Shown: positions 26,214-61,834 of the stretch, one piece after another
How positions within the stretch are numbered: the first letter of the stretch is position 1
Layout of the letters: each line of letters starts with the position of its first letter
Origin: Cerioporus squamosus
Lineage: Eukaryota > Basidiomycota > Agaricomycetes > Polyporales > Polyporaceae
DNA: 64,000 bases
Assembly (NCBI GenBank): GCA_022592435.1
Contig: JABYQS010000013.1
Coordinates: 372,001 to 436,000, forward strand
Reading direction: 5' to 3'
Translations under genes and position numbers: made by a program
Notes under the pieces: generated by a model
Seen by the model: only the letters and a program-made list of their open reading frames with translations
What the model was told of the DNA's origin: nothing
Database searches by the model: none

Positions 26214-28238
26214 ATGGATCCGAACAGCTTCGGCCAGGGGCCCCCGCCCTTCCAACCTCCGCCTATGCACGGATACTACCACCCGATGCAGGCGCCGCCG
26301 TTCACCATGGCGCAGATGCAGCCGTTCTGGCAGCCGCAGACGACCTTCGCGCCTCCCATGCAGCCGATGCCCCAGTGGGTACCCTGTTCCAGTGCGCCGT
26401 TCCAGGCTCGGGGTCATGGCATGGGTATAGATATGGGTATGGGGCAGCGCCAGTGTGCTGGTGACGGCGGGCCCGCGACAACGACGCATCTGAGCCGCAC
26501 ACAGTCAATGGCGAGCGATGCGCGCAGTGCTGGAGAGGTCCTGGCGGACGCGCTGGGGATGGGAAAGGAGCTCGGGTTGTCGCAACGCGATGTGCTGGAA
26601 CACTTGCGAAACGTACGTTCGCCTTTTGGTGTGTTGTCTCAGTGCTGTCGAGTATGTGGCTAACGAAGCATCGCGCGTGTAGGCGGAGAAGTACAAAGGC
26701 GTCGGTCAGTCTTCAGCCTCCGCTGTGCACGTCCTCTTCGTTGAAACGTCCTCCTTGCAGATTGGACTGCTTATTTCTTGGAGAATGCGGTTTTGCCGGG
26801 TGGTAGTGCTGAGGTTGTAAGTCGAGTGCCTGAGACTCGTGGCGCAGACCTGTCTCAGGGATCGCGGGCTACGACTTCGACAGACGAGCCGCCGCAGTAC
26901 GATTCATCCACTTGTGCCACCCGTGCTCCGTCGCTCATACAGTTCTTCCACGCCCCGTCCGGATATCGCAGGAAGAAAGGCAAGACGACGCATAAGATGC
27001 GCATCAGCACCAGCACTGGCCGTCCTCGGGGTCGCCCACGAAAGGTCCTGCCGAACCAACGCAGTGTGCCTTCCGAGTCCCGCTCCCGCGATGGCGGCAG
27101 TCTCGCGCCTTCGTTATCCACCGCGAGTAGCAGCACTCGGGCCACGGGAAGCCGGCCGAAGAGAGGAGGGATGTTGCTAGAGTTCCACAACGAAACCTGC
27201 ATACCGCCGTCGGACAACTCGTCGAAGCCGATTGCCCCTCGTAGAGATCCCGATGATGATCTCACCAAGTTCAGCCCGGAGGAGAAGATCTTCTTCATCC
27301 ATTACTTGAAGTGGCGACTTGGTGCAGGCAGGGTGCCGTCCAAGTATACCCTCCTTGCGGAGCTGGCCAAAGAAGTGAGTGCCAGGAGTCGAGTCCTCTG
27401 CAGTGATGTGTTACTTACGAGCGGATGATGTCTTCACAGCTGCCATATCGCGACGTGGAGGCATGGAAGAAGCATTGGGACGATTATCCCATGCTCCCTG
27501 ATGAGATATACATCGCTGCACGCAAGCGGGCTGAAGAGGACGGGCTCCTGTCGAGCCAGAGCGATACAAGCACCCTCACTCCCATCTCATCGGGTGACGA
27601 ATATCGACCGTCGAGTCCTCGTCCCTCCCTGTCGTCCCTATCAGCTGCCGCCTCCATCTCAAGCTCCGCCAACCAAAAGGTCACCCAAGACGATCTGCGT
27701 GCCATGGCAATGTACATGATCGAAAAGCGACATGTCTGGGAGCAATACAGGAGCGACAAACAGCGCTGGAAAGAGTTCTCGCGCCGGAAGGAGGTAAGGC
27801 GGGATTCTTCTGCCGTCTGGTACAAACTGACGGCACGCTGCGCTCGCAGAACCTGAGGCGACGTTCACACAGCGGGTGGTGCAACATTGGACGACGTCAC
27901 ACAGCTGGTACGTTTTGACCTGAGTCAACTTACCTGCCACAGTACTAGTGGCGACTGACTTTGCACCGCTAACTCCGTCTGTACCAGAGATCCAGAAGTT
28001 GTATGAGGAGTACCTCGCGTCGGAGAAGGTTGATCCCGAGACGGAGGATGAACGCGACGAGGGAGAGACTCGAAACTTGGTATATCCGACGCCAGAGGAA
28101 GGTGAAGAAGGCGGGGCGCCGTCAACCGCAGTACCACCGGCGGCCTCGAGGCACTCTGGCAACTTTAGAGTTCCCGCAAAATCCGCCGAGATGATGAAGG
28201 TGAGAAGGGAGTACATAGAGGTCTCTGATTCCGAGTAG
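26214..28238 (+). CDS. Paralog A: triple Myb/SANT-like module protein with SIM-like tail
   Basis: Member of the five-gene family in this window. Exons are 26214-26612, 26683-26704 (22 nt), 26761-27374, 27440-27793, 27850-27907 and 27943-28238, in frame, 580 residues. The N-terminus is Met/Gln/Pro-rich (MDPNSFGQGPPPFQPPPMHG). Module I is diverged: GEVLADALGMGKELGLSQRD, then across the microexon to DWTAYFLE. A basic patch (TGRPRGRPRK) resembles an AT-hook or nuclear signal. Module II is FSPEEKIFFIHYLKWRLGAG, LLAELAKE, then after an intron PYRDVEAWKKHWDDYPMLPD. Module III is VTQDDLRAMAMYMIEKRHVW then RRRSHSGW, followed by EIQKLYEEYLA. The tail is RREYIEVSDSE. Gene B follows 340 bases downstream. 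No annotated family is recalled. Nuclear DNA or chromatin binding is inferred from the module pattern. Confidence 0.8.
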
Positions 28239-28577
28239 GTACTAGGTCGTTTGAAGTGGTTGTGTCGTATAACGCATTCTCAGTACCACCAACTCGCGCC
28301 ATCGACACTCGTAGACATACACGCATGTACACGAAGCAATTAAGCACGAAGCGTCCACAACGCAAGGTGTGGGAGCTACTTTGCAATTAAGTCCGCCATG
28401 TGAAGAGTCACATTTCGGGCACACTTCCTACCCAAAGCGGAAGCCAGACGAGTGTCAAGAACCACGCAAGTTCTTCTTGCTCCCCACGGCCGTTCTCCCG
28501 CATCGATGCAGGCCCTACATACCCTTTAGCCCAGCGCCCTCGAGCTCGCACCCCCGCGCCCGAGGCCATCTGCCGCC
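28239..28577. other. Intergenic between paralogs A and B
   Basis: 339 bases between two tandem co-oriented paralogs. It holds the 3' flank of A and a C-rich leader of B just before the ATG. No other gene. Confidence 0.45.
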
Positions 28578-59684: not shown

Positions 59685-61834
59685 ATGAACCCAGTCCCCG
59701 TCCCCCCTCATCTCATGGGCACGCTGATGGGCCTTTTACAGGCTCAGCTTCCGCTGCAAGGGCAGGTTCAGCAGGCTGCTCCTCCCGGCATCGCGCCCAT
59801 GCAGGGGGTATACCCGGCGCAAATGCAGCTCCCACCTGGGATGGGGCCTGTCTTCAACTGGTCGGGCTGGCAGCCAGCCCAGCCCGGTATGGCGGGGGTC
59901 CCTCAGCAATTTCAGGCAATGCATCAGCAGCAATATATGCCACAAGGCCAGCCTTCGCAGATGACTGCGCCGCAGACGTCCATGAACGACTTGCAAGCCG
60001 CAGTGGCAGCAGCGATGCAGCAGCAGGAGCGCGGACCACTGGCATCTGGATCACCGGTTGGGTCGCATCCGAACGACGAACAGACCCTGGTCGACGCGCT
60101 GAAGAAAGGACGGGCGGATAGCTTGAATCCTCGCCAGGCTCTGGAGAAGCTCCACAAGGTGCGCGAAGTCTCCACCGTGGAATGGAATCATATTGGGACA
60201 TCCAACTGAACTTGCGCGTAGGTGAACGGTCATACGGAGATGGGTAAGCTGCTCGAGACCTTATCAGCTCCGAGCCCGTACTGATGGCTATATGCGGTCG
60301 TGTCGGTGCAGAATGGAAGAACTACCTCTTGGAGCACCTCGAGCGTTTCTATTCTATGGTATACGAGCGACGCACAGAGGGTTCTGGTTCACACCATCCT
60401 GTTCATCAGCGTGGGCGTTCTTCAACCTCTGGGCAAGGGGACGCGCAGTGAGTGGGGTTGAAGGCGTTCTTCGATACATCTGCTGATAAACATATGCAGT
60501 GCGAAGCCGTCGCAGTCGGCCTCTACTAGTACGAAAGGGATGAAGGCCCGACACTCGTTCGGTCGCAGAAGGAGGACGCCCGATGATCCGTCGCGGTCTC
60601 CCTCACCGAACCCTGTACCCGTCAGCGGCCGTTCGGTGAAGGCTGCACCTCCTCGTGAGCCTCCCGCATCGAGTGCCAGCCACGCGCACCTGGAAAGAGC
60701 CGAGGCGGTCGTCTCCGAGCATGCGGGCGTGCAGATCCCGTTGTTGCCTCGACATGTCAAGCCCAAACCTCCTCCGCAGCCCGCATTGCCTGAGGGCTCG
60801 AACAGGATGGGGAAGTTCACAAAGGAAGAGAAGATCTTCTTCATCCAGTTCTTGCGCTGGCGACTACGGAAGGGCCCTGTTCCGGATTGCTCTGAGCTAT
60901 GTCAGGATCTCTACGTGGAGGTATGTCGGCCTGACATGGCTCCGATGTCACCTGACGAATAAGGCCACCATAGGCACCTCATCGGTCTCCGAGTTCGTGG
61001 AAAAAACACTGGGAGAATTACCCTCAGCTCCCGGAGAGTATTCTCGCGGAGGCTAAGGAGCGCCGTGCCGCCCATGAGCCCGCAGATACGACGGCAAGCC
61101 GGTCTGCGGCTCTCGCCGAGGATGAAGAGGATGAGGGAGACGAGGAGGATGAGGAGGACGAAGAGGACGAAGAGGATGAGGGAGATGTGCCTGCAGACGA
61201 CACCGACCCCGAGGATGCAGCGTCCCCGCGTCCCCGGAAGAGAAAACCAAAGCGATGGTTTGCACCGAGAAAGGTCACCGAGGAAGACATTCGCGATCTG
61301 GCGAAGTACAAGCTGACAAGATTGCATGAATGGGACGAACTCACGACCCACAGGGCGCGCTGGGAAGACTTCACCTCCAAGGTATGTCATGTCCTCTTTA
61401 ATGACGCGTCCCTACGGAAACTCATGCTCCATGAGAGTGTAGAACACGAAGCGGACATATGGCGCGTGGATGCTCGTCGTGAGTGCTCGTGAATATGGTT
61501 TGTGTTCAATGCAATTGTGTAGAGCTCGTGATCTTAGCTGACCAATTCACCCATCTCCTCAGAGATCGACGAGGTCGTACGGGAGCTGCGCGAGGAACAG
61601 AAAGCGGAGCGACACGACTCACCTCCGCCCGCGCCTGCAGCATCTCCTCCGTCCGATGTGGCTTCGACGTCGGGCCGGCCGACCAACTCCGTTCATGCAG
61701 AGCAGGCGACGAGTGTCCTCCAGAAGCGCGATACCGACTCTAGGTTGGCAGTGCGGAGCGGATCCCCGGTCGCGAAGCGCATCAAGCAGGAGCCCGACAC
61801 GGAATACATCTCCCTGCTGTCAGACTCGGATTAG
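59685..61834 (+). CDS. Paralog E: triple Myb/SANT-like module protein with SUMO-type tail
   Basis: Exons are 59685-60158, 60222-60243 (22 nt), 60312-60447, 60500-60920, 60974-61381, 61443-61482 and 61563-61834, in frame, 590 residues. The N-terminus MNPVPVPPHLMGTLMGLLQA is Gln/Met/Pro-rich with an Ala-rich helix (NDLQAAVAAAMQQQ). Module I is NDEQTLVDALKKGRADSLNP, QALEKLHK, then VNGHTEMEWKNYLLEHLERF. Module II is FTKEEKIFFIQFLRWRLRKG, LCQDLYVE, then APHRSPSSWKKHWENYPQLP. A pure Asp/Glu tract (about 61115-61190) and a basic RPRKRKPKRW patch precede module III, KVTEEDIRDLAKYKLTRLHE, RWEDFTSK, then NTKRTYGAWMLV. The tail is KRIKQEPDTEYISLLSDSD: IKQE is a SUMO-acceptor consensus, followed by a SUMO-interaction-like motif. 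The exon 6 donor is weak (GTGCTC) but keeps phase. It is a solitary copy about 10 kb from D. Confidence 0.83.

What the first reader, a model, noticed from the sequence alone, without database searches (positions are those of the whole stretch)
26214..61834. Five paralogous genes of one unrecognised family inside 36 kb
Genes A (26214-28238), B (28578-30543), C (45260-47318), D (47729-49847) and E (59685-61834) share the same order of parts: Met/Gln/Pro-rich N-terminus, Ala-rich helix (in C, D and E), an ALKKG..GL...QALEKLH helix pair, WK-(N/D)-(Y/F)-x-L, FFIHYLRWRL, HR....WK.HW, LRAMAKY, (N/R)xxRxxxxAW and a short acidic tail. Two are tandem pairs and one is single, with ordinary housekeeping genes between. 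Sequence drift outside the motifs is large, so the copies are not a recent assembly artefact. This is a local, lineage-specific expansion of probable nuclear proteins with no functional name that I know.
Basis: seen in the sequence. Interest (0 to 1): 0.88.

Follow-up and report, generated by a model that had tools for sequence, protein, structure and literature searches.

The report
Mushroom proteins with three Rap1-like domains
A bracket fungus carries a cluster of five related genes for probable nuclear proteins built from two or three copies of a small module of the kind found in the telomere protein Rap1, many ending in a likely SUMO-binding tag; what they do is untested.

Summary
The five genes are real paralogues in Cerioporus squamosus (Polyporaceae): their first three introns share phases 0/1/2 around a 22-nt microexon. 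The "motifs" are helices of three Myb modules (D1, D2, D3) of the Rap1 type. Support: Pfam Myb_Rap1 (best 34.8 bits, in a Trametes homologue; gene C 24.0, under the cut-off), AlphaFold domains resembling Rap1, TEBP-2 and SANT folds at modest Z, and a phase-0 intron 8-10 codons before the helix-3 Trp in all 14 modules, where the Rap1-type modules of two other genes here can also be spliced. I infer that one Rap1-type Myb exon pair was multiplied inside a gene. The "acidic tail" fits a SUMO-interacting motif in 17 of 34 proteins by the published pattern (shuffles: mean 1.35, maximum 5). Homologues found (capped searches) are all polypores, 20 species. A, C, D and E have Lentinus orthologues, B probably a Dichomitus one, so the expansion predates the species. 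They are not Rap1 itself: no BRCT was found, and a separate BRCT-Myb gene exists. Most likely SUMO-linked chromatin or DNA-binding proteins. New variant of a known kind; function untested.

The parts
26214..28238 (+). Gene A, 7 exons, 540 aa, D1-D2-D3
   Evidence: splice model; Lentinus tigrinus orthologue P0031
26520..26792 (+). A: D1 module (aa 103-151), diverged
27267..27529 (+). A: D2 module (aa 285-350)
27677..28016 (+). A: D3 module (aa 400-467)
28206..28235 (+). A: C-terminal tail REYIEVSDSE, SIM-like only by my wider pattern
28578..30543 (+). Gene B, 6 exons, 552 aa, D1-D3 form without D2
   Evidence: Dichomitus relative P0020 also without D2
29001..29284 (+). B: D1 module (aa 142-198)
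29845..30174 (+). B: D3 module (aa 363-430)
45260..47318 (-). Gene C, 8 exons in my model, 550 aa, D1-D2-D3
   Evidence: Pfam Myb_Rap1 24 bits, E 5.5e-5, under the 27.1-bit cut-off
46703..46994 (-). C: D1 module (aa 109-165), best Pfam Myb_Rap1 stretch
46017..46262 (-). C: D2 module (aa 290-354)
45536..45899 (-). C: D3 module (aa 394-459)
45263..45319 (-). C: LKHE site and SIM-like IVEI tail
47729..49847 (-). Gene D, 7 exons, 585 aa (= C8T65DRAFT_636020), D1-D2-D3
   Evidence: AlphaFold model
49206..49496 (-). D: D1 module (aa 118-174), helices 122-135, 140-145, 155-164, 166-174
48792..48875 (-). D: conserved KRG.PV..FHAGT.IPP beta-hairpin ahead of D2
48510..48770 (-). D: D2 module (aa 304-370), helices 307-322, 330-340, 346-355, 358-374
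47966..48293 (-). D: D3 module (aa 443-507), helices 446-458, 469-479, 485-494, 496-513
47732..47779 (-). D: tail KRVKREPPEYIDLTSD (basic patch, VKRE sumoylation consensus; IDLT SIM-like only by my wider pattern)
59685..61834 (+). Gene E, 7 exons, 595 aa, D1-D2-D3
   Evidence: Lentinus relatives P0013, P0014, P0015
60063..60364 (+). E: D1 module (aa 127-183)
60813..61063 (+). E: D2 module (aa 316-381)
61271..61591 (+). E: D3 module (aa 451-515)
61775..61831 (+). E: tail KRIKQEPDTEYISLLSDSD (IKQE consensus and SIM ISLL)

Best explanation
A family of probable nuclear chromatin or DNA-binding proteins, so far seen only in polypores. Each full chain runs: Q/P/M-rich disordered head, D1, basic linker, beta-hairpin plus D2, acidic linker, D3, and a tail with a basic patch and, in half to two thirds of members, a SUMO-interacting motif. 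D1, D2 and D3 are copies of one Rap1-type Myb module (helix 1, helix 2, phase-0 intron, helix 3 with invariant Trp), multiplied inside an ancestral gene; the gene was then duplicated before Cerioporus and Lentinus separated, and some members lack D2. Proposed working (inferred): D3, with D2 where present, contacts DNA or nucleosomes; D1 makes protein contacts; the tail binds SUMO-conjugated partners, and a neighbouring hydrophobic-K-x-(D/E) site, present in 16 of 34, is itself modified. Shown by computation: homology of the genes, module structure, intron register, tail motif. Not shown: DNA binding, SUMO binding, nuclear location, target.
Against: Net charge of the modules is near neutral (means -0.2, +1.5, +1.5), lower than I would expect (recalled) of strong DNA binders. 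Three of the five window genes (A, B, E) have no PF08914 match, and none of the five reaches its cut-off; an unrelated family, DUF5069, reached 0.00036 in one member. D3 gets no Pfam match even as consensus, and reversed-sequence controls reach E 0.0094 and 0.01, so the D2 consensus match (0.0024) is only modestly above noise. Foldseek gives no match with E<=0.001 for either model; all Z are below 8, and unrelated chains (bacterial MogR/GmaR 5.6, a designed protein 5.1) tie with the Myb ones. hhalign between D1, D2 and D3 is weak. The SIM patterns were set after I had seen the tails; A and D pass only the wider one, B neither. Relatedness inflates the motif counts.
Confidence: 0.58

Rival explanations
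1. SANT-like adaptor proteins: the modules bind histones or other proteins, not DNA, and the family works as SUMO-linked chromatin scaffolds.
For: Near-neutral module charge; CoREST SANT domains are among the best structural matches for D1; disordered head and SIM-like tails suit a scaffold.
Against: The sequence family found is Rap1 Myb, not SANT; D3 matches the DNA-bound TEBP-2 MCD3; a basic pair just ahead of D3 helix 3 is kept: R483 in 32 of 33, K or R at 482 in 29 of 34.
Confidence: 0.3
2. Lineage-specific duplex telomere or subtelomere proteins, the fungal counterpart of nematode TEBP-1/TEBP-2.
For: Similar plan to TEBP (a first and a third predicted RAP1-like homeo/Myb domain named, paralogues within Caenorhabditis; passages of PMC8113555); D3 aligns with TEBP-2 MCD3; yeast Rap1 is sumoylated (passage of PMC5440461); this genome has TTAGGG arrays and a separate BRCT-Myb Rap1.
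Against: No direct link to telomeres found; no exact triple TTAGGG on the cluster's contig C35; DNA preference untested; orthologues are only 51-67% identical, more diverged than I would expect of end protection.
Confidence: 0.15
3. Ordinary Myb-type transcription factors of the fungal 1R/2R/3R kind, duplicated like many regulators.
For: Two Ganoderma surveys pooled PF08914 proteins with MYB transcription factors (passages of PMC8955403 and PMC7407476); the Q/P-rich head resembles an activation domain (recalled).
Against: No other Myb family (such as PF00249, PF13921) among the matches of the 20 members scanned; modules are separated by linkers of 39-133 residues rather than in tandem as in c-Myb (recalled).
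Confidence: 0.25
4. A decaying gene cluster: drifting pseudogenes from an old expansion.
For: Sixth copy has an in-frame TGA; the sister haplotype's A is interrupted; orthologue identity is only 51-67%; C has a frame conflict in the linker.
Against: A, B, D and E have open spliced frames; allelic pN/pS 0.35 (A) and 0.63 (B) (few differences); orthologues kept in other genera; Trp invariant and tail motifs recurrent.
Confidence: 0.08

Closest known systems
Rap1 (yeast Rap1, human TERF2IP) and Pfam PF08914 Myb_Rap1
   Same: Helix-3 motif H-(T/S)-x-x-x-W-(K/R) (in most D1; D2 and D3 with changes), helix order, phase-0 intron place shared with the Rap1-type genes of this genome as I splice them, Pfam match.
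   Different: No BRCT found, three separated modules instead of one or two, SIM-like tail; a distinct BRCT-plus-Myb gene exists at C1:652106.
Caenorhabditis TEBP-1/TEBP-2
   Same: RAP1-like homeo/Myb domains in paralogues of one genus; the fragment with the third predicted domain binds telomeric DNA (passages of PMC8113555); D3 aligns with TEBP-2 MCD3.
   Different: Sequence homology was not tested beyond the PDB profile search, which did not list it; no telomere binding tested; the fungal family has a SIM-like tail and a D2-less form.
Tay1, TayL1, TayL2 and Tbf1/TRF telomere proteins of fungi
   Same: Myb proteins that changed repeatedly across fungi (passages of PMC7952879 and PMC7744550).
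   Different: Tay1 has two consecutive TRF-like Myb motifs (passage); ours match the Rap1-type model.
Daxx SIM (IIVLSDSD)
   Same: Hydrophobic core followed by S-x-S/acidic residues (passage of PMC8616421); family tails such as VIVLSD, YIDLTSD, YISLLSDSD at the very end.
   Different: Only the short motif is alike; no relation to Daxx is claimed.

Membership tests
Pfam PF08914 Myb_Rap1 module | Score over the curated cut-off (27.1 bits) | tested here: inconclusive
   Window genes: C 24.0, D 16.3, A, B and E no match. Homologue P0005 34.8 bits, over it; the other 8 of the 9 in that call are under it or unmatched.
Pfam PF08914 Myb_Rap1 module | Three-helix Myb fold with helix-3 Trp | tested here: inconclusive
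Rap1 protein | N-terminal BRCT domain | tested here: not met
   No BRCT match in the five proteins or in the 20 members of A5. The same library finds BRCT_2 at 3.6e-9 in the separate C1 gene (open frames joined by eye).
Rap1 protein | C-terminal RCT domain | tested here: inconclusive
   No Pfam match in the family, but the C-terminal open frame of the C1 gene also had none, so the test is insensitive.
TEBP-1/TEBP-2 | Binding of telomeric double-stranded DNA by the third module | not testable with these tools
   Only fold resemblance of D3.
SUMO-interacting motif | hhXh or hXhh core flanked by acidic or Ser residues | tested here: met
   17 of 34 tails against shuffle maximum 5; of the window genes C and E meet it, A and D only a wider pattern of mine (22 of 34), B neither. 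Consensus as in a passage of PMC8616421.
SUMO-interacting motif | Physical SUMO binding | not testable with these tools
   none

The most novel reading that the evidence does not exclude
Bracket fungi of the Polyporaceae evolved, by multiplying a Rap1 Myb exon pair inside one gene, a second family of SUMO-linked duplex-DNA readers beside true Rap1: a counterpart of nematode TEBPs that arose independently and works at chromosome ends or other repeats.
Probability: 0.15. Interest if true: 0.8.

Novelty: new variant of a known kind. Interest (0 to 1): 0.5.

Why it matters
If right, a telomere-type Myb module was multiplied within a gene and the gene family then expanded in one fungal family, as a second source of Rap1-like proteins beside canonical Rap1. 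That gives a comparison with nematode TEBPs for how duplex-DNA readers arise repeatedly, and the SIM-like tail offers a direct bench test. It also gives a usable name and domain map to proteins now listed mostly as hypothetical, and points to a 22-nt microexon that the public model of gene C omits.

Tried and rejected
Sequence comparison with the PDB found nothing: the five-gene profile gave only a chance hit, D2 alone gave albumins at E 1.6. Foldseek alone gave no significant match for either model; I took the ribosomal and other hits there as chance. hhalign between modules gave a plausible register for D2-D3 but weak scores, so I do not rest the repeat claim on it. That the cluster is subtelomeric is not supported: exact TTAGGG triplets lie on C106, C209, C335 and C676, not on C35. 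Paper searches for this family: 'Rap1 Myb' + mushroom (0 papers); Rap1 + Polyporales + Myb + paralog (0); TERF2-interacting telomeric protein + Basidiomycota (0); PF08914 or Agaricomycetes (3,423 papers hold one of the two, 15 listed); Rap1 + basidiomycete + telomere + Myb (5 papers); Cerioporus squamosus + genome (9 listed, none about this family by title). Two Ganoderma surveys that name PF08914 were met (passages read). TEBP-2 with 'Myb-containing domain' gave 0 papers. My first automatic splice models had false introns and were corrected by hand. The sixth copy was left out of the trees because its frame is not closed. Selection was only measured between two alleles with few differences.
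Full report
What is there. The window lies in Cerioporus squamosus: my spliced model of gene D is identical over 585 aa to C8T65DRAFT_636020 of that species, the public contig length equals that of C35 (457,410), and the taxonomy is Polyporaceae. The five genes were modelled by hand from open frames and GT-AG introns. In all five, exon 1 ends in phase 0, a 22-nt exon follows and ends in phase 1, and the next exon ends in phase 2. 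C carries one extra intron in the acidic linker, and B lacks the intron that falls inside D2 because it lacks D2. With 24-31% identity to A, this common plan is good evidence of common descent.

What the motifs are. Aligning A-E with the homologues found (10, 17 and 25 proteins; 33 distinct, the window's own D and C among them) resolves three modules. D1 holds ALKKG..GL...QALEKLH and WK.YF.L; D2 holds FFIHYLRWRL, ELAE and HR..AWK.HW; D3 holds T..DLRAMAKY, W..F and KR(S/T)...AW. Pfam Myb_Rap1 (PF08914) is the one recurrent match: 12 of 20 members at E<=1, best 2.3e-8, while each of 11 other families matched one member (the best of these, DUF5069, at 0.00036). P0005 is above the cut-off; gene C reaches 5.5e-5 and D 0.013, while A, B and E have no match. 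Consensus D1 gives 1.2e-4 and D2 0.0024, D3 none; reversed controls gave unrelated hits at 0.0094 and 0.01, so D2 alone would be borderline.

Intron register. In all 14 modules of A-E a phase-0 intron lies 8-10 codons before the helix-3 Trp, exactly 9 in 11 of 14. In gene D the codons are 149, 340 and 479 and the Trp residues 158, 349 and 488. A rough chance estimate for two further introns falling there within one codon is 7e-5 (assumes random placement). The three Rap1-type modules of two other genes in this genome can be spliced with a phase-0 intron at the end of helix 2: in C1 this is the candidate with the best donor (GTGAGT) of three, in C34 good GTACGT and GTGAGT donors fit there among several candidates. 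No transcripts were at hand. I infer descent of D1-D3 from a Rap1-type Myb exon pair.

Relation to Rap1. The genome keeps a separate gene with BRCT_2 (3.6e-9; open frames joined by eye, splice sites not checked) and Myb_Rap1 (8.7e-6 and 0.011 in two open frames; over the cut-off in the genome search), and a two-module gene on C34 (best 36.8 bits). No BRCT was found in the family. It is therefore not Rap1, though its modules are of that type.

Tail. I built a set of 34 proteins (A-E plus 29 homologues; P0001 and P0011 dropped as duplicates of D and C, P0019 and P0021 as fragments). By the published hhXh/hXhh pattern with at least two D, E or S in the flanks, 17 of 34 have a SIM in the last 18 residues, against a mean of 1.35 and a maximum of 5 in 500 shuffles and 15 of 988 non-terminal tiles. 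A wider pattern of mine, set after seeing the tails, gives 22 of 34 against a mean of 1.6, a maximum of 6 and 17 of 988 tiles; a first count on 24 gave 16 against a mean of 1.3. 16 of 34 have a hydrophobic-K-x-(D/E) site in the last 60 residues against a mean of 4.0 and a maximum of 12. The 12 misses by the wider pattern are B, P0004, P0005, P0008, P0014, P0016, P0020, P0022, P0023, P0024, P0025 and P0030; P0005 and P0016 look like wrong or cut models. The sequences are related, so these are not independent counts.

History. In the 34-protein tree (194 columns, LG+I+G4) these groups have ultrafast bootstrap 100: C with Lentinus and Polyporus, D with L. tigrinus, and E with Lentinus. A pairs with L. 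tigrinus P0031 (100 on the branch that separates the two from the rest). B pairs with Dichomitus squalens P0020 (bootstrap 95, SH-aLRT 73). Most deep nodes are not resolved. D2 is absent in B, P0007, P0020 and P0022, and in P0017 and P0018, which may be faulty models. Of the 33 proteins, 31 have an organism name and all of these are polypores, of 20 species; I checked the family of Cerioporus, Pilatotrama, Ganoderma and Fomes, the other genera are Polyporaceae by recall. The searches reach only relatives that share short words, and two of the three scored only a capped candidate list, so absence elsewhere is not proof. Judged by equal contig lengths, members lie on one contig in L. tigrinus (four proteins, 2,297,577 bases), L. 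brumalis, P. arcularius and T. meyenii (two each); the two of G. leucocontextum and the three of D. squalens do not share a length. This is inferred from the listings.

Orthologue identity between Cerioporus and L. tigrinus is 51-67% over the aligned positions, with modules better kept than most linkers. Between the two haplotypes pN/pS is 0.35 for A and 0.63 for B from 14 and 18 differences, too few to judge selection.

Mechanism. The best reading is a nuclear, SUMO-linked protein with three Myb/SANT-type modules. In TEBP-1/2 the fragment with the third predicted domain binds telomeric DNA and the one with the first mediates pairing (passages of PMC8113555); I carry that over as a hypothesis for D3 and D1. 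Near-neutral module charge leaves the adaptor rival open.

Noticed in passing
window 28079-28094 in gene A's last exon; L037 from 3408, L035 up to 3244: In the sister haplotype the match to the window breaks off inside gene A's last exon on contigs C408 and C369; pieces of the sequence beyond have 7 and 30 matches in the genome, themselves included, so A seems interrupted by repetitive DNA in one haplotype.
   Followed up: partly
window 28239-28242; L035:3394-3608: The sister haplotype has a 215-base insertion just after A's stop with matching inverted ends (GTACATCAGTAAAGTG / CACTTTACTGATGTAC), like a small MITE.
   Followed up: no
G000:C25, about 58153-60200 (L034): Sixth family member with all three modules, a 22-nt microexon and a VKVEIIDLTN end, but an in-frame TGA just before the D2 intron donor.
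   Followed up: partly
L036 (C369:17000-22930): The end of this haplotype contig shows many single-base deletions against the window, suggesting low assembly accuracy there.
   Followed up: no
window 46818-46839 (gene C): The public model of C (P0011) skips the 22-nt microexon and starts further in than my model.
   Followed up: yes
window 42499-43974: Ubiquitin-activating enzyme E1 gene (ThiF, E1_4HB, SCCH domains) lies between B and C.
   Followed up: no
G000:C34:96338-96954 (L038): A gene with two Rap1-type Myb modules (best 36.8 bits) and an acidic C-terminal part, distinct from the BRCT-Myb gene.
   Followed up: partly
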